Shown here: positions 34,032-56,500 of the stretch, piece after piece
How the letters are laid out: each line of letters opens with the position of its first letter
Numbering within the stretch: the first letter of the stretch is position 1
Assembly (NCBI GenBank): GCA_025917655.1
Contig: CP084613.1
Coordinates: 4,156,001-4,220,000 of the forward strand
DNA: 64,000 nt
Direction: 5' to 3'
DNA from: Chlorella sorokiniana
Lineage: Eukaryota; Chlorophyta; Trebouxiophyceae; Chlorellales; Chlorellaceae
Translations under genes and position numbers: made by a program
The notes under the pieces: model-generated
Databases searched by the model: none
What the model was told of the DNA's origin: nothing
The model's input: only the letters and a program-made list of their open reading frames with translations

Positions 34032-35572
34032 TCAGGCCCCGCGTGTGCGAGGCCCGCCCTCACTGGGCTCCTTGTCACCCTCAGGCTTGTCGCCGTTGCC
34101 AGGCTCCTTGTCGTCCTCAGGCTTGCCGCCGTCGCCATCAGCAGCGTTCTCAGCGTTGTTGTTGAGCCCAGAGTTGCCTGGCGGGTCCTGGTCACCGTTG
34201 CCAAAGCCGTTCTGCAAGAAAGGGTGGGGTTGCGTGGGGTGCGGAGGTCACGACACAAGCGGCAGCAGCAACTGGCTGGAACATTGCCAAGACGACGCTC
34301 TTCTGGCTGCCTTTGCGACAAGCAGCTGCTTATCCCCCCCACCCCCAATCCCCGCGTCCGTCGCTCACGTTTTCGTCCTCAGGCTTGCCGCCATCGCCAG
34401 GCTCCTTGTCATCCTCAGGCTTGCCGCCATTGCCAGGCTCCTTGTCATCCTCAGGCTTGTCGCCGTTGCCAGGCTCCTTGTCATCCTCAGGCTTGCCGCC
34501 GGCGGCATCAACAGCGTTCTCGGCGTTGTTGTTGGGCCCGGAGTTGCCTGGTGGGTCCTGGTCACCGTTGCCATAGCCGTTCTGCAAGAAAGGGTGGGGT
34601 TGAATGGGGTGCTGCGGTCACGACACAAGCGGCAGCAGCACCTGGCTGGAATGGGCGAAGCTGCTCTGTGCAGACTGCTCTTGCTACAAGCAGCAGCTTC
34701 TGGGCCCCCGCCCCCAACCCCGCGTCCGTTGCTCACGTTTTCGTCCTCAGGCTTGCCGCCACTGCCAGGCTCCTTGTCATCCTCAGGCTTGTCGCCACTG
34801 CCAGGCTCCTTGTCGTCCTCAGGCTTGCCGCCGTCGCCATCAGCAGCGTTCTCGGCGTTGTTGTTGGGCCCGGAGTTGCCTGGCGGGTCCTGGTCACCGT
34901 TGCCAAAGCCGTTCTGCAAGAAAGGGTGGGGTTGCGTGGGGTGCGGAGGTCACGACACAAGCGGCAGCAGCACCTGGCTGGAATGGGCGAAGCTGCTCTC
35001 TGCAGGCTGCTCTTGCTACAAGCAGCAGTTTCTGGGCCCCCCCGCCCCCAACCCCGCGTCCGTTGCTCACGTTTTCGTCCTCAGGCTTGCCGCCACTGCC
35101 AGGCTCCTTGTCATCCTCAGGCTTGTCGCCATTGCCAGGCTCCTCGTCGTCCTCAGGCTTGCCGCCGTCGCCATCAGCAGCGTTCTCGGCGTTGTTGTTG
35201 GGCCCGGAGTTGCCTGGCGGGTCCTGGTCACCGTTGCCAAAGCCGTTCTGCAAGAAAGGGTGGGGTTGCGTGGGGTGCGGAGGTCACGACACAAGCGGCA
35301 GCAGCACCTGGCTGGAACAGTGCCAAGACGACGTTCTGCTGACTGGCTTTGCGACACGCAGCTGCTTCTTCCCTCCCCCGCCCGCGTCCGTCGCTCACGT
35401 TTTCGTCCTCAGGCTCGCTGCCATTGCCAGGCTCCTTGTCATCCTCAGGCTTGTCGCCGTTGCCAGGCTCCTTGTCGTCTGGCTTGCCGCCGTCACCATC
35501 ATCAGCGTTCTCGGCGTTGTTGTTGGGCCCGGAGTTGCCTGGCGGGTCCTGGTCACCGTTGCCAAAGCCGTT
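34032..35572 (-). repeat. Tandem array of five duplicated exon+intron units
   Basis: Five copies of one exon with its flanking intron, start to start 325, 334, 332 and 370 bp. Exon lengths are 174, 177, 177, 213 and 180 (last, with stop). Every internal copy begins right after ttgcag and ends at GAAAAC|gtgagc in phase 0. The intron copies also share long identical blocks, so whole genomic units were duplicated. Confidence 0.9.
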
Positions 35573-38500
35573 CTGCAAGAGGGGGTGGCCCCAAGTGGGG
35601 CTTAGTTGTTAGAAGGTCCCATCACCAACACCTACAGTACCTTGCACATGGAGGCAGCTGGCTATGACCTGAAGGCCACTAGTTCAACCCAACTTCAACT
35701 CACATTTTCATTATCAGGGTGCTTGGGCGGTGGGGGGAGAAGTCCGGGTGCTCGGGAGGAGGGGGAGAGAAGTCCGGGTGCTCGGGAGGAGGGGGAGAGA
35801 AGTCCGGGTGCTCGGGAGGAGGGGGAGAGAAGTCCGGGTGCTCGGGAGGAGGGGGAGAGAAGTCCGGGTGCTCGGGAGGAGGGGGAGAAGTCCGGGTGCT
35901 CGGGAGGAGGGGGAGAGAAGTCTGGGTGCTCGGGAGGAGGCGGCGAGAAGTCCGGGTGCTTTGGAGGAGGAGGGGAGAAGTCCGGGTGCTCGGGAGGAGG
36001 GGGCGAGAAGTCCGGGTGCTCGGGAGGAGGGGGAGAGAAGTCCGGGTGCTCGGGAGGAGGGGGGAGAAGTCCGGGTGCTCGGGAGGAGGGGGAGAAGTCC
36101 GGGTGCTCGGGAGGAGGGGGAGAGAAGTCCGGGTGCTCGGGAGGAGGGGGGAGAAGTCCGGGTGCTCGGGAGGAGGGGGAGAGAAGTCTGGGTGCTCGGG
36201 AGGAGGCGGCGAGAAGTCCGGGTGCTCGGGAGGAGGCGGCGAGAAGTCCGGGTGCTCGGGAGGAGGGGGAGAGAAGTCTGGGTGCTCGGGAGGAGGCGGC
36301 GAGAAGTCCGGGTGCTCGGGAGGAGGGGGAGAGAAGTCCGGGTGCTCGGGAGGAGGGGGAGAGAAGTCCGGGTGCTCGGGAGGAGGGGGAGAGAAGTCCG
36401 GGTGCTCGGGAGGAGGGGGAGAGAAGTCCGGGTGCTCGGGAGGAGGGGGGAGAAGTCCGGGTGCTCGGGAGGAGGGGGAGAGAAGTCCGGGTGCTTTGGA
36501 GGAGGAGGGGAGAAGTCCGGGTGCTCGGGAGGAGGGGGCGAGAAGTCCGGGTGCTCGGGAGGAGGGGGAGAGAAGTCCGGGTGCTCGGGAGGAGGGGGAG
36601 AGAAGTCCGGGTGCTCGGGAGGAGGGGGAGAGAAGTCCGGGTGCTCGGGAGGAGGGGGAGAAGTCCGGGTGCTCGGGAGGAGGGGGAGAGAAGTCCGGGT
36701 GCTCGGGAGGAGGAGGGGAGAAGTCCTCCGGCTTGGGCGGCGGTGGGGAGAATTCCTCAGGCTTGGGTGGAGGGGGAGAGGCGTCCTCGGGCTTGGGTGG
36801 AGGAGGAGAGGCATCCTCGGGCTTGGGCGGCGGGAACGCCTCAGGCTCCTCCTTGGGGGCGGGGGAGAGGCGTCCTCGGGCTTGGGTGGAGGAGGAGAGG
36901 CATCTTCCGGCTTGGGTGGCGGGGGAGAGGCGTCCTCGGGCTTGGGTGGAGGGGGAGAGAAGTCTTCTGGCTTGGGTGGAGGAGGAGAGGCATCCTCCGG
37001 CTTGGGCGGTGGGAACGCTTCAGGCTCCTCCTTGGGTGGAGGAGGAGAGGCATCCTCCGGCTTGGGCGGCGGGGGAGGCATCCTCGGGCTTGGGTGGAGG
37101 AGGAGAGGCATCCTCCGGCTTGGGCGGCGGGGGAGGCATCCTCGGGCTTGGGTGGAGGGGGAGAGGCGTCCTCAGGCTTGGGTGGTGGGGAGAGGCGTCC
37201 TCGGGCTTGGGTGGAGGAGGAGAGGCATCCTCGGGCTTGGGCGGCGGGGGAGGCATCCTCGGGCTTGGGTGGAGGGGGAGAGGTGTCCTCGGGCTTGGGT
37301 GGAGGGGGAGAGAAGTCTTCTGGCTTGGGTGGAGGAGGAGAGGCATCCTCCGGCTTGGGCGGTGGGAACGCTTCAGGCTCCTCCTTGGGTGGAGGAGGAG
37401 AGGCATCCTCCGGCTTGGGCGGCGGGGGGAGGCATCCTCGGGCTTGGGTGGAGGAGGAGAGGCATCCTCCGGCTTGGGCGGCGGGGGAGGCATCCTCGGG
37501 CTTGGGTGGAGGGGGAGAGGCGTCCTCAGGCTTGGGTGGTGGGGAGAGGCGTCCTCGGGCTTGGGTGGAGGAGGAGAGGCATCCTCGGGCTTGGGCGGCG
37601 GGGGAGGCATCCTCGGGCTTGGGTGGAGGGGGAGAGGTGTCCTCGGGCTTGGGTGGAGGGGGAGAGAAGTCTTCTGGCTTGGGTGGAGGAGGAGAGGCAT
37701 CCTCCGGCTTGGGCGGTGGGAACGCTTCAGGCTCCTCCTTGGGTGGAGGAGGAGAGGCATCCTCCGGCTTGGGCGGCGGGGGAGGCATCCTCGGGCTTGG
37801 GTGGAGGAGGAGAGGCATCCTCGGGCTTGGGCGGCGGGGGAGGCATCCTCGGGCTTGGGTGGAGGGGGAGAGGCGTCCTCCAGCTTGGGTGGAGGGGGAG
37901 AGGCATCCTCGGGCTTGGGTGGAGGGGGAGAGGCGTCCTCCGGCTTGGGTGGAGGGGGAGAGAAGTCTTCTGGCTTGGGTGGAGGAGGAGGAGAGGCATC
38001 CTCCGGCTTGGGCGGTGGGAACGCTTCAGGCTCCTCCTTGGGTGGAGGAGGAGAGGCATCCTCCGGCTTGGGCGGCGGGGGAGGCATCCTCGGGCTTGGG
38101 TGGAGGAGGAGAGGCATCCTCCGGCTTGGGCGGCGGGGGAGGCATCCTCGGGCTTGGGTGGCGGGGGAGAGGCGTCCTCGGGCTTGGGTGGAGGAGGAGA
38201 GGCATCCTCCGGCTTGGGCGGCGGGAACGCCTCAGGCTCCCGCTTGGGTGGCGGGGGAGAGGCATCCTCGGGCTTAGGTGGAGGAGGAGAGGCATCCTCC
38301 GGCTTGGGTGGCGGGGGAGGCGTCCTCGGGCTTGGGCGGCGGGGGAAGGCATCCTCGGGCTTGGGTGGCGGTGGAGAGGCATCTTCCGGCTTGGGCGGTG
38401 GGTGAGATGCGCCCGTGGGGTTTTGGGGCGTTGTGTCGTGTGTCACCGGAGGCGGTGGCAACCGTGCATGCTCGCTTGGCTTCGGCGGGTGCTGCCCAGC

Positions 38501-40800
38501 TGGGATGGACCCCGGGGGTGGTGCCCTCCCGGCTCCCCCGCCTTCGTGCCGCTCCTTGCCACCGCACGCGTGGGCCAGCCTCCTCCACCGGTTGTGAAGG
38601 GAGTGCAGAGTGGGGCTGTCAGTGATCTCTGGCAGCAACACCTGCAGTGCACCAGCACAAAAGCGCGTTACAGCGCCTCGTCAGGGCAGCCTGCAGAGAA
38701 TGGGGCGCCCGCTCGTCTGCTCCCTACCGCTGCCGCCACCCCACTCCAGCTGGCTGCTGCCAGCCCCGCCCTCAGACACAAGCTGGGCTCAGGACGGGCA
38801 TTGCCAGTGTCCAAATCAGCGCCACCCCGCGCCCACCTCTTTGACGACGTGCACGATGGATGCGCCCGCCTCCAGGTCCGCCTCAACCACCTTCACCTCC
38901 TGCCCGGTGGTGGTGTTCAGGAACACGTGGCGGCGGCGTTGGCGGCGCCGCCACTCGACGTCCACCTGCGCGCAAAGCGGGCGGTGGCGGATGGGGAGTG
39001 GGTGTAGGGTGCACGCGTCTGCGGCACCCTGGTTGGCGGGGTGGGGTGGCAGCAGGCGGGTCTTGGATCTGCAGGGCGGAGCCGAGCTTGCGGCGGCAGC
39101 GTTCTGCCGGGCTGCCCGCCGGCCGCTGCACCTGGACAAGTGAGAGTGCGTCGCCCAGCCTGGCTGCCTACACACATCCGCATGCCCGCGGGCTGCCGGT
39201 GCTGCTACCGGGCTGTTTGTTCTGGCGCAGCGGGCGGGTGGGCATGGGGCCAATGCAAAAGCCAAAGTGAGGCCTCCCTGCCCCCTCCCGGGCTGCCCCT
39301 CACCTCCAAACTCTCGTTCTTCAGCAGGGTGTGCAGGTTCTGGCCATCCCGCAAGTCTTCTGCCCTGGCGACCAGGCAGGGCACGATGTGGTAGGACAGC
39401 ACAGCGGCCAGCGTCTCCTGCAGGGGGCCAGGGCCAGGGGGCAAGCTGGTCTGGGCGGGGCTGAGTTGGTGGGAGGGGGCTGCGTGCCGCCGCTGCCGAC
39501 CGCTGCAGAAGTGGGCTGCTGGCAACAACTTGGGGCTGCTCCCAGGCGGCCTCGCACTCGCTGCCTCTGCTGCCTTCAGATGCGGGCATCGCCCTGGAAG
39601 GGCGGGAGCGGCGGCGCTGCTGCTGCGCGGCAGGCTGCCTGCAGCAGCCTCTGCCCCGCAACTCACATTCTCCGCCAGCAGCTCCTCGGCGGTCACGTTC
39701 AGCGCCGCCAGCAAGGACTCAAAGGCGCAGTTGTCGGGTGCAAAGAACGTCACGTGCACGCGGGGGTCTGCGGAGATTGCAGGCGGGGGCGGGGGGTCGG
39801 ACGAGGGAGCAGGCGAAGCAGCAGCCAGAGCAGAGGGAGCAGCGGCCGGGGCAGCGGCGCGCCGAGGGCGGGGCAGCGCCGGAGCAGCGCTGCGCTGAGC
39901 AAACGAGCTTGCCTTGCAGGATGTCAAACAGGCCCACAGTTTCGGCGGCCCTCGCCAGCAGGGTGAGGTCGCCTCGCTGCGCCAGCAGGTCAGAGATGGA
40001 GCTGCCGTTCTTGGCGGCGGCTGCAGGGGGTTGGGAGAGGCGCCGCAGCCAGCGCCTTGGCAACATAAGCACTGCAGCAGCCCACCTGCGGGCTGGGGAA
40101 GGCCTGACGCGGCGCTGCTGTAGTGAAACGTGCGGCGTGGTGCGGCGGCTGGCGCAGCTCACCCTCGCAGGGAAGGCGGACGGTTTCGCCGCGGTGCAGA
40201 CTGGCGTGCGGGCTGTGGATTGAAGGGTTGATCAGCTCCAGGGCAGATTGGGCCAAGTCGTAGTGGTCAGCAACCTGCAGGGTATGGGGTGGGGGAAGAT
40301 GGTGAGGTCAGCAGCCGCCAGCCGCAGGCTTGTGCGCGCGCAGAGCAGAAGGCGGCCACCGCAGGCCAGCAAGCAGGCGGCCGCCGCGAAGCAGCACATA
40401 AAATATTGAATCCCCGCTCACCGTCCATAGGTCCTCGCCACGCTTCACAGTGTGCTTGCATGGCAACTCAACGGGGCAACGGTGGAGGTGGTGGTCGGAC
40501 GGAGGACGCCGGGTAGCTGCAGCGTCGTTATGCAACGCACTGTTAGTTGCTGCAGTACCCGACAATTAGACGTCCACGAGGGAACGGTCGGCTACATGGA
40601 TTCATTGGATATCATTCGCACCCTCCCCGCCAAACCCAACGGGGCGGGGCCCGATGGCGCATGCCGAGGCACATGCCGCCAGACCGGCCTCACCGAAGCG
40701 TTTCAATCGTGCACTGGCAATATAAGCAGAGGCAGTCACCTGACGCAACGCCGCTTGCAGCGAGGAGCGCCACCACTATCAGCAGGTGGCGGCGCGCCAT
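34032..40800 (-). CDS. Secreted LysM-FAS1 protein with giant proline-rich repeat and tandem Asn/Asp/Gly-rich exons (paralogue 1)
   Basis: Predicted secreted or wall-anchored adhesion protein. Exons in order: 40740-40800 (signal peptide MARRHLLIVVALLAASGVAS), 40422-40516, 40163-40274, 39913-40020, 39667-39767, 39304-39417, 38837-38965, 35704-38641, then five repeat exons 35399-35572, 35071-35247, 34737-34913, 34369-34581 and 34032-34211. LysM: HTVKRGEDLWT, then VADHYDLAQSALELINPSIH and GETVRLPCE. FAS1: SISDLLAQRGDLTLLARAAE, VTFFAPDNCAFESLLAALNV, TLAAVLSYHIVPCLVARAED, HVFLNTTTGQEVKVVEADLE. The big exon encodes PEHPDFSPPP and KPEDASPPPP repeats. The C-terminal exons encode NGFGNGDQDPPGNSGPNNNA and (KPEDDKEPGNGD)n. 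All core junctions are in phase; the 39913 donor is GC. The single frame cannot be followed through the big repeat. Confidence 0.8.
35718..36720 (-). repeat. 30-bp minisatellite, PEHPDFSPPP repeat (about 33 copies)
   Basis: A near-perfect 30-bp unit on the minus strand encodes P-E/K-H-P-D-F-S-P-P-P. A few units are one or two bases shorter, which shifts the frame locally. It is part of the large exon of LysM-FAS1 paralogue 1. Confidence 0.92.
36721..38405 (-). repeat. 28-30-bp minisatellite, KPEDASPPPP repeat (about 57 units) with 353-bp higher-order period
   Basis: Units encode K-P-E-D-A/F-S-P-P-P-P in one frame. A distinctive unit (KEEPEAFPPP) recurs near 36831, 37011, 37364, 37717, 38015 and 38222. 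The 37011-37364-37717 spacing of 353 bp marks a higher-order repeat of 12 units. Units of 28 and 29 bp occur beside 30-bp units inside each block. Confidence 0.9.
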
Positions 40801-42044
40801 CACCATCAGCGGCAGGCTGCACCAAGGACCCTGCCACCAGTGAAATCGCTCACTTGCCGACTTTCTGATCAACCTTGAGCAGAAAAATATGGATCAAGTT
40901 AATAGAATGAGCCCGCACAACGCATAGCCCTTGGATTTGCTTGCTTTCTTTTACCCCGACCCGAGGACCTCGCAGCCTCGCTGGGAGCTGTGCGGCCGCC
41001 TTCCTGCCCAACTTCCACCCCCCAAACGCGTGTCTTCCATGTCCTGACTGATCCAGGGCCATATTTCCATTCCCATTGAAGAGATTTGTGGCATTCTGGC
41101 AATTTGGGCCCCTGGAATGCAGCAGGGGAGGTTGCCACCGCCCAGGCTGGCTGCGGCAGTCCTGCCCAAAGTCCAAAGTGAGCAGTAGCTGCAGTAGCTT
41201 AACTTCACCTCAGTAGCCAACTTTCGGTCGCACGTGCAAAGCCATGCAGAAAGGCATTCCATGCGCAACACAGGCAGCAGCCTGTCGAAATGCCGCCAAG
41301 CCCTCAGGGTCCAGCCAGCCCCCTGCCCTCAGGCCCCCACCGCCACCGCTCCGCCTGCCGTGAAGGGAGGCTGCCCCGAGAGCTGCACTACATCTAAGCC
41401 GCCTAAAGTCGCGTCCTGCAGTGCCTGGTTCGGCGTTTTGCGTTGACCGGCGCAGAGCCTGTGTGCAGCGTGCAGCGCTCGGCACGCTCACGGCTGTCGA
41501 TGTTGGATGCGCGTCGGGCGGCGGCAGCACCGCCTCAGCCTGCAGCCCGCTGGCAGTCAGACTTGATGCTCCTTGATGCCTGCTCATCCGCTGCAGGGCG
41601 TTCACACCTGGGTTCCGTGTCCACTAGGGCTACCTGACAGTCTCAGCTGCGGCGCTAGGGACCCAGGGAGCTGCCGCTGGCAGGTGCATGGCACGGGAGG
41701 TGTTGTACAGCTCAGCCAGACACGCACCACCCGCCTGACCAGCCCAGCTTGAATTCCACGTGCGTTCGAAGCACGGCGCAGCCAGGCGCCAGGCGTGGGA
41801 GTGCAAAAATTTACAGATGGGGACTGTTGCGCAGCTGGGCTGCCAGGGCATCGGGGGATGAATGGGGGAATGAAATGAAGGGGGCAATTGCCGCCCACGT
41901 TGGGGAGGGGGGCCTAGAGGGGGCTGAGATATATCATGTTCCTATCACTCAATCAGGGGGGGGCACGAAATTTTGCCGCCCAGGCTGACAGTCTGGCATG
42001 GCTCGCTCGCTCGTCGTGCTCGCGCGCTGCAGCTGGCACACACC
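40801..42044. other. Intergenic region between the two LysM-FAS1 genes
   Basis: This includes the promoter of paralogue 1 and the 3' flank of paralogue 2. No coding segment was recognised. A minus-strand TGTAA for paralogue 2 is annotated separately. Confidence 0.45.
41811..41815 (-). terminator. TGTAA poly(A) signal, LysM-FAS1 paralogue 2
   Basis: TGTAA on the minus strand about 230 bp downstream of the stop at 42045. Confidence 0.6.
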
Positions 42045-45000
42045 TCAGCAGGGCAGGATGATCTCTTGGCCTGCGGTCACAGTTACAGAAACAGGGGCAG
42101 CTGAGCAGGCAGCTTCGCTGGCGCCGGGAGGCAGCAGCGCATACGCGGGCGCAGCGCCTGTGGCCAGGGGCGCAGCGGCGAGGTGGCACTGTTGGCAGGC
42201 CGGCGGACAGGCGCATCATGGCACGGTCTCGTGGCCAGGCTGCTCCCCTCACCGGGATAGATGAGGCTGGGGTTGCGGATGGAGGGGTTCAGACGCACCA
42301 GCTCAGCCACGCTGGTGCCGTAGCGCTGCAGGGGAGCAGGCAGGATGGGCACAGCACGCACAGCGCATGTGAGGGTCGCGCAAGCGCAATGTAGGGTCGT
42401 ACGCGCATTTGTGCTAGCGGTTGTCAGCTATACTCCGCGTGCAGAGGCATGCCGCAGCAACAGCGGCAAGGGGGCGCTGGTAAACGTCAGCTGGTAAAGA
42501 GTAACAAATGCAGGGCACAGAAGAGCCCCCACCTGAGCAATGGAGTACAGGTACTCGCCCCTCACAACAGTGTGGGTGCAAGGGCGGTGATCCGGAGAGG
42601 GGGTCGGGCGGTGGTCGGGGGAGGGGGACGGGCGGTGGTCGGGGGAGGGGAGGGGCGGTGGTCGGGAGAGGGGGAGGGGCGGTGGTCGGGAGAGGGGGAC
42701 GGGCGGTGGTCGGGAGAGGGGGACGGGCGGTGGCTGGGAGAGGGGGAGCGGCGGTGGTCGGGAGAGGGGGACGGGCGGTGGTCGGGAGAGGGGGTCGGGC
42801 GGTGGTCGGGGGAGGGGGACGGGCGGTGGTCGGGGGGGGGGAGGGGCGGTGGTCGGGAGAGGGGGAGGGGCGGTGGTCGGGAGAGGGGGACGGGCGGTGG
42901 TCGGGAGAGGGGGAGGGGCGGTGGTCGGGAGAGGGGGACGGGCGGTGGTCGGGAGAGGGGGACGGGCGGTGGCTGGGAGAGGGGGAGCGGCGGTGGTCGG
43001 GAGAGGGGGACGGGCGGTGGTCGGGAGAGGGGGACGGGCGGTGGCTGGGAGAGGGGGAGCGGCGGTGGTCGGGAGAGGGAGACGGGCGGTGGCTGGGAGA
43101 GGGGGAGGGACGATGATCCTCCTCACCGGGCAGCAGCACCTGCAGCAATGAGAAGGGCAGCAAGCATGCTGTGCAGCAACCGGGGTGGGCACGCCCGCAA
43201 ATGAGCAAGACCCTCGGGCACTGTACACCTCCTTGCCTCCCCCCACCCCACACCCACCCACCCACCCACAACACAAAACACGCAACCCTCGCGATGGCTG
43301 CCGCCACTCCAGCAGCCGCCCACCTGCTCCACAACATGGATGATGGAGCGGCCTGCCTCCAGGTCCGCCTCGATCACCTTCACCTCCTGCTCGCTGGTGG
43401 TGCGCAGGAACACGTGGCGCCTGTCCAGCTTCACCTGTGGGGAGACCAGCCCGGGGCGCGATTTGGTGTAAGGAGGTGGAGCCAGCCTGGCACTCGTCGG
43501 ACGGTGAACTGCTCCTGCCTCTGCTGAGAGGCGAGCACTGAAAGAAGTGCATGGGCTGCTCAACGCCAGCCGCCCCAGCCGTCGCGTCGGGCTGGTCCCC
43601 CTGGAAGGCTGGCAGATGTCCGAGACACATGCTGCCAGCCGCGGCGGCCCCCACGCTGCAGCCTGGCCGCCCAGCCGCCGTGCACCTTCAAGCTCTGCCC
43701 CTCCAGCGCAGTGGGGAGCTCCTGTCCGTCGCTCAGGTCCTCTGCCTTGGCAGCCACGCTGGGCACGACGTGGTAGGTCAGCACGCGCACCAGAGTCTCC
43801 TGCGGGTCAGAAGTGGCGGCAGAGCAGGTGTTGATCATGGTCAGCGGTCAGCCATGGTCGGTGATAGGGCAGGCAGGCGAGGCGGGCTGGCCTGGGGCGA
43901 TCGAAGGGCAGAGGGTGGAGGAGGTGGTGGGCTGGCCCGGCGAGGTGCGTGGCCCGACCAGTTAAGACGAAGCATTGGACAGGTGTCTCTTCTGTCTCTG
44001 CTTTTCCACCCCCTTCCAACAGCCCACCTTGTCGGCCAGCAGCTCCTCGGCGGTGACCCCCAGCTGCTCCAGCAGCGCCGCGAAGGCGCAGTTGGTGGGC
44101 GCAAACAGGGTGGCCTCCAGGCGGCGCTCTGCGGCAGGGATGCGCAAGCGTTGCACACGACGCACGGAATTGGGCAGCACTGGGATGTGCTGGCCGTGGC
44201 AGAACAACGAAAGGGGTGGTCAGCAACGGTGTGTCGGGCATGGTTGGGCGGTTGTATTGTTGCGAGGGGCGCACCAGACAGGGTCTCCACAATCCCTGCA
44301 GCCTCTGCAGCCTGGACCAGGATGGAGAGGTCGGGCGCTGGGTCAGCAGATCCGCGATAGAGCGGCCCTCGGTGGGGAGCTCTGCAGTTGAGGGAGGCGG
44401 AGGGTGGGCGGGACGACAGCGCGTGTTAAGAGGGGAGGATGGCAACGGGTGGTGGGATGAGAGGAAAGAAAGCAGCAAGACACCACCTGGGTTGCAAGCG
44501 CTACTATCAGCTGCCAAGAGGGAGAGGAGAGAAGGGATCGTCTGTGTCGCAAGTTCCACTCCGGAAAGAAAGCCCATAAGCCCAAACAAGCAAGCCAAGT
44601 GGGAGAAAGGATGCAAAGTGCATTGACGGCCGGCCGATGGCAGGCTCTCACCACAGGGAGGTGCACAGTGTCGCCGCGGCGCACGGCATGCGGGTCGTGC
44701 ACATGGGGGTTGGCAGCAGCCACAGCCTCACGCTCCAAGCCATAGCGGTCGGCAATCTGTGGGGCAGGGGTGTAAGGGCGAGCGTGCAGCGGGGAAGGCT
44801 TCAATGCCTCTGGGGGAAGAAGGCAGGTTCCCAGCATGCAGGGGCTGTGCGCAGCGTGGCTGTGCGCAGCGTGTGCTGGCGGCGGTGGCCCAGCACCCAA
44901 AACTCACCGACCACAGGTCCTCGCCACGGACGACGGTGTGAGTGCAGGGGACCTTGAAGTCGCATCCATCGTCGTGAGGGCGGCGCTCGGGGGTGGCGGG

Positions 45001-45267
45001 TGGCTGCGATCAAGGGGGCGCGACCGTTGCGCTCCTGGGTGCCAAAAATAAAGACTACGATGGGCAGCACAATGCTGCAAAGAGCCTGCGCAAATGCTCC
45101 GGCGCCAACAGGCGACAGGTGGCTGCCGCGTTTTGATGGTACGCAAATGACGAGGCTGCTCCGCATTTCATACCGCGTTGCCCAATGCATTGAATTCCGC
45201 AGCACTTGCCTGATGCCAGGCCGCTGGCCAAGAGGAGCGCAGCAACCAAGACGTGGCTGCGCGCCAT
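42045..45267 (-). CDS. Secreted LysM-FAS1-(SPDHRP)n-LysM protein (paralogue 2)
   Basis: Paralogue of the downstream gene with the same core exon plan. Exons: ends about 45210 (signal peptide MARSHVLVAALLLASGLAS, start 45267), about 44908-44990, 44652-44756, 44275-44381, 44028-44128, 43686-43799, 43324-43434, 42533-43139, 42253-42325 and 42045-42070. LysM1: PCTHTVVRGEDLWS, IADRYGLEREAVAAANPHVH, RRGDTVHLPV. FAS1: GRSIADLLTQR, ATLFAPTNCAFAALLEQLGV, TLVRVLTYHVVPSVAAKAED, HVFLRTTSEQEVKVIEADLE. After the SPSPDHRP repeat comes a second LysM: CTHTVVRGEYLYSIAQ, RYGTSVAELVRLNPSIRNPS, then PGQEIILPC and stop. The 101- and 114-bp FAS1 exons match paralogue 1 exactly. The 107-bp exon is one base shorter than its 108-bp counterpart (frame break near 44325), the repeat exon is one base over frame at a G10 run (about 42831), and the exon 1-2 junction is unresolved. 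Confidence 0.78.
42590..43115 (-). repeat. 24-bp minisatellite, SPSPDHRP repeat (about 21 copies)
   Basis: The coding (minus) strand repeats S-P-S-P-D/S-H-R-P/R. The plus strand is a G-rich array of cggtggtcgggagaggggga-type units. It lies inside one exon between FAS1 and the second LysM of paralogue 2. Confidence 0.92.
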
Positions 45268-55054: not shown

Positions 55055-56156
55055 CCAAACGGCATGCTGCTTGTCCAGCAAGCGGCTCCGCTATCAGCAC
55101 CCTCCCCATCCGACGCCATGAGTCGGCCACCCTGCACTTTTTTTGTCGTTGGACCAGCCCCATTCCCGAGCCTGCCTCATTTTTTCACTCTCGCAGTAGC
55201 CCCTGCCCATTTCGGCATCTGCTAGCATGGCTTTCGATGCAGCGAGCGTATTCTTGTGTCCAGAATGTCCACGCCCTCCGTCTTTTTGGTTGCTGCGGCA
55301 CGGGCAGCAGGGCCGGCTGGCCACCGTCGCTCCGGGAACTGGCAGCCGTCCATCCACCTGCTGCCTGCGCCCAGGTCTCCCTACCGCCTCCCCTGTTTCC
55401 TGGTTACCAACCACCTTGCATGCCTCGTTTTCTCGAGCATTAGGCACTGCAGGTTCTTGAAACTGCACACTGAGATGAGAATGTCTTTTGAGCGGCAGGG
55501 GCGGGCGCGCGGCCCCCACCCCCTGTGCATGCACCATCAATCATGTGATGTAACGCACAGCTGTGAGCTGCCTGGTCGCAAACTCTTGGTTGGTGGCAGA
55601 AGCCGTTTGCCCGTGAGCTGCTCATCGGCTGGGGTGAAGGCAGCCAGCCGTCAAGCCTCCAAGTCACCCCCTTCCCAGCTGCCTCGCCGCCGAGCGGCCG
55701 CCCCGCCACGGCGCGCCTGCGGTTCCTGCTGTGCGGCTGCTAGCGCGTGTGCCTGCTGGCCTTCCGCATCTGCGTCGCTGCCGCAGGAGCTGCAGCTTCT
55801 GCGCAGGGCATGCACGGTAGCATGTCAGGTGCTGCGTGTCTACCCAACCCTTGGTTGGGCAGCTGCAGGTCAGTGCAGAGGGAGAGTCTTACCGGAACCC
55901 GAGGCAACGCTTCTTCTTAGAATGTCTCACCTGGAGGCTAGCTCGTGGTGCTGCTGCGGCTGCTTCCTCCCCCTCCTCCAGTACATTTTCCTGCAGTGTG
56001 CTTGGTGCAAACAGCCCTCAACTGCCGTGCAACAAGCACCTGCAAAAGGGCTGCCTGCTCTCTTCCCCCGTCCTCTCCAGTCGGCTTGCTCAACAAGCTG
56101 ACCGCCATTCTTACCTCTTCTTCTCTCACACTTCCCGTTATCCTGAGCCCGCAGCG
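55055..56156. other. 3' flank of pyruvate kinase, no gene recognised
   Basis: Contains a TGTAA at 55549-55553, about 495 bp after the pyruvate kinase stop and a plausible poly(A) signal. The open frames have no recognisable protein features. Confidence 0.45.
55549..55553 (+). terminator. TGTAA poly(A) signal, pyruvate kinase
   Basis: First clear TGTAA downstream of the pyruvate kinase stop. Confidence 0.5.
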
Positions 56157-56500
56157 CCTGTGCGCATCAGCTGCCGCCCCGTTGGGCCAGCAATCAAGCA
56201 AGGGCCTGCCCCGCAGGGCCTGTGCCCATCAGCTGCCGCCCCGCAGGGCCAGCAATCAAGCAAGGGCCTGCCCCGCAGAGCCTGTGCCCATCAGCTGCCG
56301 CCCCGCAGGGCCAGCAATCAAGCAAGGGCCTGCCCCGCAGGGCCTGTGCCCATCAGCTGCTGCCCCGCTGGGCCAGCAGTCAAGCAAGGGCCTGCCCCGC
56401 AGGGCCTGTGCCCATCAGCTGCTGCCCCGCTGGGCCAGCAGTCAAGCAAGGGCCTGCCCCGCAGGGCCTGTGCCCATCAGCTGCCGCCCCCTTGCCATCA
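56157..56500 (+). repeat. 62-bp tandem repeat, five full copies plus a partial
   Basis: Units begin at 56157, 56219, 56281, 56343, 56405 and 56467, each starting cctgtgc(g/c)catcagctgc. There are only a few substitutions between copies. The unit length is not a multiple of three, so the frame shifts at each copy. No gene could be assigned to it. Confidence 0.93.

What the first reader, a model, noticed from the sequence alone, without database searches (positions are those of the whole stretch)
34032..45267. Tandem pair of secreted LysM + FAS1 proteins with diverging repeat tails
Both genes encode a signal peptide, an N-terminal LysM (GlcNAc-polymer binding fold), one FAS1 adhesion domain, then a proline-rich spacer. 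The LysM-FAS1 core shares exon lengths (108/107, 101/101, 114/114 bp) and phases, so the pair is a tandem duplication. After the core they differ. Paralogue 1 has PEHPDFSPPP/KPEDASPPPP repeats and five Asn/Asp/Gly exons. Paralogue 2 has SPSPDHRP repeats and a second LysM at the C-terminus. LysM and FAS1 are each well known, but I do not know this combination as a described family. Inference: cell-wall cross-linkers in algae whose walls contain glucosamine polymers.
Basis: partly seen in the sequence, partly recalled or inferred. Interest (0 to 1): 0.78.

Follow-up and report, generated by a model that had tools for sequence, protein, structure and literature searches.

The report
Algal secreted FAS1–LysM wall-protein family
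A green alga carries a small family of secreted proteins that join a sugar-polymer-binding module (LysM) to a cell-adhesion module (FAS1) and a stretchy proline-rich arm, probably to tie proteins to its chitin-like cell wall; each part is well known, but I did not find the combination described.

Summary
The two genes are real and lie on the minus strand. Paralogue 1 (P1) reads without a break from signal-like start through LysM and FAS1 into the proline-rich region (8 exons, in phase). Five Asn/Asp/Gly exons follow, each a multiple of 3 with GT-AG borders. Paralogue 2 (P2) has the same core plus a three-exon C-terminal LysM. In this assembly its frame is broken in exon 4 and at two repeat units, and the exon 1/2 phases do not fit. 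P1's long repeat needs 14 frame changes to keep one reading.

The main new result is that the pair is not alone. The same genome has a second tandem pair with LysM-FAS1-LysM (C4) and a tandem trio in which two genes are FAS1-LysM (C8). In Q1 the end of FAS1 and a whole LysM share one open exon, so the fusion does not rest on guessed splicing. Of 90 prokaryote and viral-contig FAS1 relatives scanned, none showed LysM.

I judge it a new architecture of known parts, most likely tethering matrix proteins to a GlcNAc-containing wall polymer; that function is inferred. The FAS1 domains group apart from carotenoid-binding AstaP. My paper searches found no description; no eukaryote protein database could be searched.

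The parts
40740..40806 (-). P1 exon 1: start and signal-peptide-like segment (MVMARRHLLIVVALLAASGVAS)
   Evidence: GT donor, phase 1
40422..40516 (-). P1 exon 2: linker and first part of the N-terminal LysM
   Evidence: Pfam LysM
40163..40274 (-). P1 exon 3: rest of the N-terminal LysM (ends LPC)
39913..40020 (-). P1 exon 4 (108 nt): start of FAS1; GC donor
39667..39767 (-). P1 exon 5 (101 nt): FAS1 FAPDNCAF segment
39304..39417 (-). P1 exon 6 (114 nt): FAS1 SYH segment
38837..38965 (-). P1 exon 7: FAS1 C-terminal segment
35704..38641 (-). P1 exon 8: last FAS1 strand (VLLPE), proline-rich spacer, KPEDASPPPP array, PEHPDFSPPP array; 2938 nt, needs 14 frame changes to stay in the motif frame
35399..35572 (-). 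P1 Asn/Asp/Gly exon 1 (174 nt)
35071..35247 (-). P1 Asn/Asp/Gly exon 2 (177 nt)
34737..34913 (-). P1 Asn/Asp/Gly exon 3 (177 nt)
34369..34581 (-). P1 Asn/Asp/Gly exon 4 (213 nt)
34032..34211 (-). P1 Asn/Asp/Gly exon 5 (180 nt) with stop
45210..45267 (-). P2 exon 1: start and signal-peptide-like segment; GC donor
44908..45003 (-). P2 exon 2: linker and first part of the N-terminal LysM (phase does not fit exon 1)
44652..44756 (-). P2 exon 3: rest of the N-terminal LysM (ends LPV, closing Cys absent)
44275..44381 (-). P2 exon 4 (107 nt; 105 from the acceptor that keeps the LysM frame): start of FAS1 with a 1-nt frame break at about 44335
44028..44128 (-). P2 exon 5 (101 nt): FAS1
43686..43799 (-). 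P2 exon 6 (114 nt): FAS1
43324..43434 (-). P2 exon 7: FAS1 C-terminal segment
42533..43139 (-). P2 exon 8: last FAS1 strand (VLLPG), SPSPDHRP 24-nt array (two 23-nt units), first part of the C-terminal LysM
42253..42325 (-). P2 exon 9: C-terminal LysM, middle part
42045..42070 (-). P2 exon 10: C-terminal LysM end (QEIILPC) and stop

Best explanation
P1 and P2 belong to a small family of secreted green-algal matrix proteins built from one FAS1 domain joined to LysM. The LysM modules dock on a GlcNAc-containing wall polymer. FAS1 holds another matrix or surface protein. The Pro/Ser-rich arm, expected to be hydroxylated and glycosylated like extensins, spaces the two. Members with LysM at both ends (P2, Q1, Q2) could bridge two polymer strands; P1 has one LysM and an acidic tail instead. 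Shown here: gene anatomy, domain identity, FAS1-LysM fusion within single exons, recurrence at three loci, shared C-terminal LysM exon layout. Inferred: secretion, GlcNAc binding, glycosylation, tethering.
For: Domains by Pfam in P1, P2, Q1 and Q2. FAS1 end and a whole LysM in one open exon in Q1 (L017 3888-4265). Last FAS1 strand and first LysM half in one exon in Q2 and R2. Same C-terminal LysM intron places in P2, R2 and R3 (for P2; R2 and R3 read by eye). Signal-peptide-like starts in P1, P2, Q2 and the three C8 genes. The C-terminal LysM of Q1 has chitin-binding Ecp6 as best solved relative and also matches chitinase LysMs 5k2l/5yzk. The genome has chitin-synthase-like, GH19 and deacetylase exons. 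Variation in repeat units leans to third codon positions, anchored positions left out: 16 of 18, 16 of 26 and 11 of 19 cells. The ten FAS1 domains of this genome put in the tree group together, away from AstaP (94/85).
Against: No transcript, proteome or binding data. P1's LysM is a weak Pfam match (9.5e-6). Bacterial peptidoglycan-enzyme LysMs (LytE 8i2e, 4uz2, 4xcm) rank between Ecp6 and the chitinase LysMs for Q1's C-terminal LysM, so the sequence does not single out chitin. P2 and Q2 are frame-broken in the assembly and P1's tail is not one open frame, so not all copies need be functional. dN/dS of 0.5 between P1 and P2 is only moderate constraint. At least five FAS1 loci of the genome show no LysM in the stretches seen, so LysM is not needed for FAS1 function here.
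Confidence: 0.5

Rival explanations
1. Soluble LysM decoy or shield: the proteins coat or mop up GlcNAc polymers, as Ecp6-type fungal effectors do, protecting the wall from chitinases (of grazers, fungi or viruses) rather than cross-linking it.
For: The C-terminal LysM of Q1 has Ecp6 as best solved relative; two LysM per protein in P2, Q1 and Q2 could clamp one oligomer.
Against: FAS1 and, in P1 and P2, a long repeat arm are not needed for a decoy; P1 has only one LysM.
Confidence: 0.2
2. Carotenoid carrier: FAS1 binds a pigment as in AstaP and LysM fixes it to the wall as a sunscreen.
For: AstaP chains are the best solved relatives of P1's FAS1 (4e-18), and 8c18 the best of Q1 (3.4e-20). Several tunnel positions stay aliphatic (57 L/L/L/M, 118 I/V/L/V, 176 V/I/V/V); P2 keeps Val111 and Ala138.
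Against: AstaP tunnel Trp79 is V/A/A/A in P1/P2/Q1/Q2; position 111 is kept in 1 of 4. The FAS1 tree separates them from AstaP. W79F was neutral in the cited mutant work and position 56 is variable there, so these residues do not exclude binding (PMC10147662, section 10 part 1 read).
Confidence: 0.07
3. P2 (and Q2) are decaying pseudogenes; only P1 and Q1 work.
For: Exon 1/2 phase misfit, shifted exon 4 acceptor, exon 4 1-nt break, two repeat-unit breaks, closing LysM Cys lost in P2; one break in Q2.
Against: The remaining P2 splice borders are intact and no stop codon lies inside the pieces read; the breaks in exon 4, in Q2 and in the unit at 42851 lie in or next to C/G runs; FAS1 dN/dS 0.47.
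Confidence: 0.25
4. The repeat arrays are non-coding minisatellites and the proteins end soon after FAS1.
For: 28- and 29-nt units recur in P1's arrays; literal frame stops at 37727.
Against: 30- and 24-nt units, codon-position-3 lean, five downstream in-frame exons, and in P2 the C-terminal LysM starts in the same exon after the array.
Confidence: 0.15

Closest known systems
Volvox algal-CAM and plant fasciclin-like arabinogalactan proteins (FLAs)
   Same: Secreted FAS1 domains with a Pro/Ser-rich region; adhesion role (PMC6032426, passages seen).
   Different: Algal-CAM has two FAS1 domains and an N-terminal Pro-rich region; a text search of that review gives 0 for LysM. Here one FAS1 with LysM at one or both ends.
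AstaP carotenoid-binding FAS1 proteins
   Same: Secreted FAS1 proteins of green algae; best solved relatives of P1 and Q1; 31-43% identity to the four.
   Different: Tunnel Trp in the two AstaP rows, Val/Ala here; separate in the tree. PMC10147662 main text has 0 hits for LysM.
LysM chitin binders: Ecp6 and chitinase LysM (5k2l, 5yzk, 5bum)
   Same: LysM motif; Cys directly before the first strand also in 5k2l.
   Different: No FAS1 or Pro-rich arm that I know of (recalled); chitinases carry a catalytic domain (recalled).
Chlamydomonas LysM-lectin combinations (PMC6362431)
   Same: LysM joined to another binding domain in a green alga.
   Different: Partners there are C-type lectin and fucolectin domains; the survey names only GNA and hevein motifs for Chlorella NC64A (passages seen; its supplementary tables were not seen).

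Membership tests
LysM (PF01476) | Profile match above curated cut-off (20.9 bits) | tested here: met
   P1 25.9, P2 85.2, Q1 81.4, Q2 70.8 bits (P2 and Q2 read with X at breaks)
LysM (PF01476) | Binds GlcNAc-containing glycan | not testable with these tools
   needs protein
Fasciclin/FAS1 (PF02469) | Profile match over nearly the whole domain (positions 2-123 of 123) | tested here: met
   P1 75.2, P2 92.3, Q1 77.8, Q2 76.6 bits, cut-off 22
Fasciclin-like arabinogalactan proteins / algal-CAM | FAS1 with Pro/Ser-rich region | tested here: met
   SPPPP and SPSP repeat arms in P1 and P2; glycosylation itself not tested
Fasciclin-like arabinogalactan proteins / algal-CAM | Two FAS1 and N-terminal Pro-rich region (algal-CAM) | tested here: not met
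   one FAS1, arm C-terminal to it, LysM present
AstaP | Groups with AstaP among FAS1 domains | tested here: not met
   AstaP pair 96/87; this genome's ten sampled FAS1 together at 94/85, unrooted
AstaP | Trp/Phe at position 79 and Val at 111 | tested here: not met
   79: V/A/A/A; 111: A/V/S/G, so P2 meets 111 only
AstaP | Carotenoid binding | not testable with these tools
   needs protein
LysM effectors (Ecp6 type) | Secreted, LysM as the only domain | tested here: not met
   FAS1 present

The most novel reading that the evidence does not exclude
FAS1-LysM is a previously undescribed class of algal matrix link protein. It arose once by fusing a C-terminal LysM to a FAS1 domain and spread as tandem arrays on three contigs; the members at two of the three loci (C3 and C4) also carry an N-terminal LysM. 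It physically couples the protein matrix to a chitin-like wall polymer, a job for which I know of no dedicated green-algal protein (recall, not searched).
Probability: 0.35. Interest if true: 0.65.

Novelty: new variant of a known kind. Interest (0 to 1): 0.5.

Why it matters
As far as I know it is unsettled how Chlorella-type walls hold their chitin-like rigid layer to proteins, and the toughness of such walls limits use of microalgae (PMC8759652, start of abstract seen). A gene family with a sugar-binding end and an adhesion end gives direct candidates to knock out, tag and test. The arrays also show a lectin-adhesin fusion changing by tandem duplication, module loss and repeat growth.

Tried and rejected
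Prokaryote or viral origin of the fusion: the search for related loci with A1 gave 10 viral-contig loci and the best 80 of 502 genome loci. All 90 open frames matched Fasciclin and none showed LysM among the 25 of 38 families displayed; single-member families are sorted by E-value there, so a LysM hit better than about 0.003 would have shown. The loci were picked by FAS1 patterns, so other LysM-FAS1 proteins could be missed. Q1 had no match in phage records at 1e-5.

Literature: LysM+fasciclin+Chlorella 0 papers; LysM+FAS1+algae 1, a lichen MAG paper, listing seen only; two of LysM domain/fasciclin/green alga 145, 20 listed; Chlorella+LysM 32, 15 listed, passages read in PMC6362431, PMC7941945 and PMC3310802; LysM+fasciclin 58, 30 listed, passages read in two; Chlorella wall terms 168, 15 listed; algal-CAM 40, 10 listed; LysM+Volvox+chitinase 3, listing only; FAS1 domain+LysM domain 3, passages read in one; Chlorella variabilis+fasciclin+adhesion 2. 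Nothing that I saw described the fusion; unlisted papers were not seen.

Not run: structure prediction. Its stated rule admits only proteins read letter for letter from the DNA, and these are spliced; not tried.

Dropped: a KPED 'otherhalf' count was out of register and is not used. The codon counts are biased because the search pattern fixed some positions; one search leaves those out. P1-Q1 and P2-Q1 dS look saturated and are not used. Loci L117-L121 were fetched and not analysed. A weak FAS1 hit at C3:241305 (0.004) was not followed. Other genes of the window were not surveyed.

Incomplete: Q1's first exon and signal peptide were not found; the end of Q2's exon 3 is not settled; R1-R3 are exon fragments, not full models.
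Full report
What is there. The window is G000:C3:4156001-4220000 of a 38.8-Mb genome in 15 contigs. rbcS exons in this genome match chloroplast Rubisco small subunits, 8q04 best, then 9hvm and 1gk8; I recall 8q04 as Chlorella and 1gk8 as Chlamydomonas, the tool gives no organism. Both genes of the finding are on the minus strand, P2 (45267-42045) upstream of P1 (40806-34032).

P1. Eight exons join in phase from ATG into the proline-rich region with GT or GC donors and AG acceptors, giving signal-like segment, LysM, FAS1 and spacer with no frame break. Exon 8 then runs 2938 nt to a GT donor at 35703. Its arrays carry KPEDASPPPP and PEHPDFSPPP in 30-nt units, but 28- and 29-nt units recur, and 14 frame changes are needed to keep that reading. 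Five exons of 174-213 nt, all multiples of 3 and phase 0, follow with stop at 34032; neighbouring exons are 75-99% identical and neighbouring introns 41-94%, so exon plus intron was duplicated as a unit of about 332 bp. Leaving out positions fixed by the search pattern, non-consensus cells at codon positions 1/2/3 are 2/0/16 (PEHPDF, 26 units), 6/4/16 (KPED, 25 units) and 5/3/11 (P2, 19 units); as distinct variants 1/0/5, 2/1/4 and 2/1/5. This leans to coding, modestly, since copies are not independent.

P2. Same core. Exon lengths 107, 101 and 114 face P1's 108, 101 and 114. The missing base shows in this assembly: the frame giving LPTEGRSIADLLTQR ends and that giving PDLSILVQAAEAAGIVETLS begins at about 44335. 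Exon 3 ends in phase 0, so the LysM frame enters exon 4 only from an acceptor at 44379, 2 nt beyond the one that gives 107 nt. Exon 1 ends in phase 1, whereas exon 2's LysM frame needs phase 0 from its acceptor. Two of the 21 unit steps are 23 instead of 24 nt. The C-terminal LysM is on three exons, SIAQ|RYG and IYPG|QEIILPC-stop. The closing Cys of its N-terminal LysM is lost.

Domains. Pfam: P1 Fasciclin 6.6e-21, LysM 9.5e-6; P2 Fasciclin 3.4e-26, LysM 2.9e-24 in two stretches; Q1 and Q2 likewise Fasciclin plus two LysM stretches.

The family. Whole-genome searches with Fasciclin, LysM and proteins led to two further loci; these searches see exons and give lower bounds. C4 (L017): Q1 with LysM, FAS1 and LysM, no break from the first LysM exon to the stop; Q2 with the same layout and one 1-nt break at about 5969. 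Q1's last exon (L017 3888-4265) holds the end of FAS1, a spacer and a whole LysM in one open frame. C8 (L147+L148, minus strand): three tandem genes with signal-like starts; R2 and R3 have FAS1 and a three-exon C-terminal LysM with introns where P2 has them (read by eye), R1 has FAS1 and no LysM that I found, and I found no N-terminal LysM in any of the three. So five genes carry the C-terminal LysM (P2, Q1, Q2, R2, R3) and four the N-terminal one (P1, P2, Q1, Q2). The N-terminal intron, after DLWT, DLWS, LYD and AFA, falls at one place; the C-terminal one, after IAQ, ALAQ, IAQ and IAN in P2, Q2, R2 and R3, at another; Q1's C-terminal LysM has none. The simplest history is FAS1 with a C-terminal LysM first, the N-terminal LysM added before the C3 and C4 pairs parted, and C-terminal loss in P1. 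Polarity is inference: the FAS1 tree does not resolve it, and the six LysM-bearing domains need two changes on it.

Other FAS1 loci without LysM in the stretches seen: C2 (L023), a similar pair on C6 (L144, L146), C6 (L149) and C10 (L150). LysM loci without FAS1 in the stretches seen: C11, C1 and C5. Within what I looked at, the fusion is limited to three tandem loci.

Cys. Eight of the nine LysM modules of this family (P1N, P2C, Q1N, Q1C, Q2N, Q2C, R2C, R3C; not P2N) have Cys just before the first strand and at or soon after the last, likely a disulfide clamp (inference).

Relatives. FAS1: P1 closest to AstaP, then TGFBI/periostin; Q1 closest to AstaP 8c18, then TGFBI. LysM: Q1's C-terminal one closest to Ecp6, then bacterial LytE, 4uz2 and 4xcm, then chitinase LysMs 5k2l/5yzk, so sequence alone does not choose between chitin and peptidoglycan. 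Of 90 prokaryote and viral-contig FAS1 relatives none showed LysM (limits under Tried and rejected). In a tree of 26 FAS1 domains (14 of 89 usable prokaryote or viral-contig ones sampled), the ten domains of this alga group together at 94/85, apart from AstaP and the prokaryote ones (unrooted; C10 is 48% filled).

Function. Docking on a GlcNAc polymer through LysM with FAS1 as the protein-binding end is the reading I favour (0.5). Support from the genome: chitin-synthase-like exon, GH19-like and deacetylase exons; from print: glucosamine in C. vulgaris wall extracts (PMC8759652, passages). AstaP-like pigment binding is disfavoured by Trp79 to V/A/A/A and the tree, although W79F was neutral in AstaP (PMC10147662, section 10 part 1 and passages) and P2 keeps positions 111 and 138.

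Novelty. Both modules and the HRGP-like arm are known; the joined architecture was not found in the searches listed. FAS1 proteins of a microalga have been surveyed with no mention of LysM in the text (PMC7590803, 0 hits), as in a FAS1 review (PMC6032426, 0 hits). Hence new variant of a known kind.

Noticed in passing
G000:C11:1276217-1285007 (L116, L018): A chitin-synthase-like exon (PF03142 2.2e-8) lies about 4 kb from a cluster of LysM exons on the same strand; a possible chitin wall locus.
   Followed up: partly
G000:C6:2378703 (-) and C6:2408088 (+): Two very similar FAS1 genes in opposite orientation about 30 kb apart, no LysM in the 3-4.5 kb seen around each.
   Followed up: partly
window 56148-56490: Tandem array of 62-bp units, 5.5 copies, 96% matches.
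   Followed up: no
window 39913 and 45210: GC instead of GT splice donors (AG|GCAAG) at P1 exon 4 and P2 exon 1.
   Followed up: no
window 42851, about 44335; L017 about 5969: 1-nt frame breaks in or next to C/G runs in otherwise conserved coding sequence, suggesting homopolymer errors in the assembly.
   Followed up: partly
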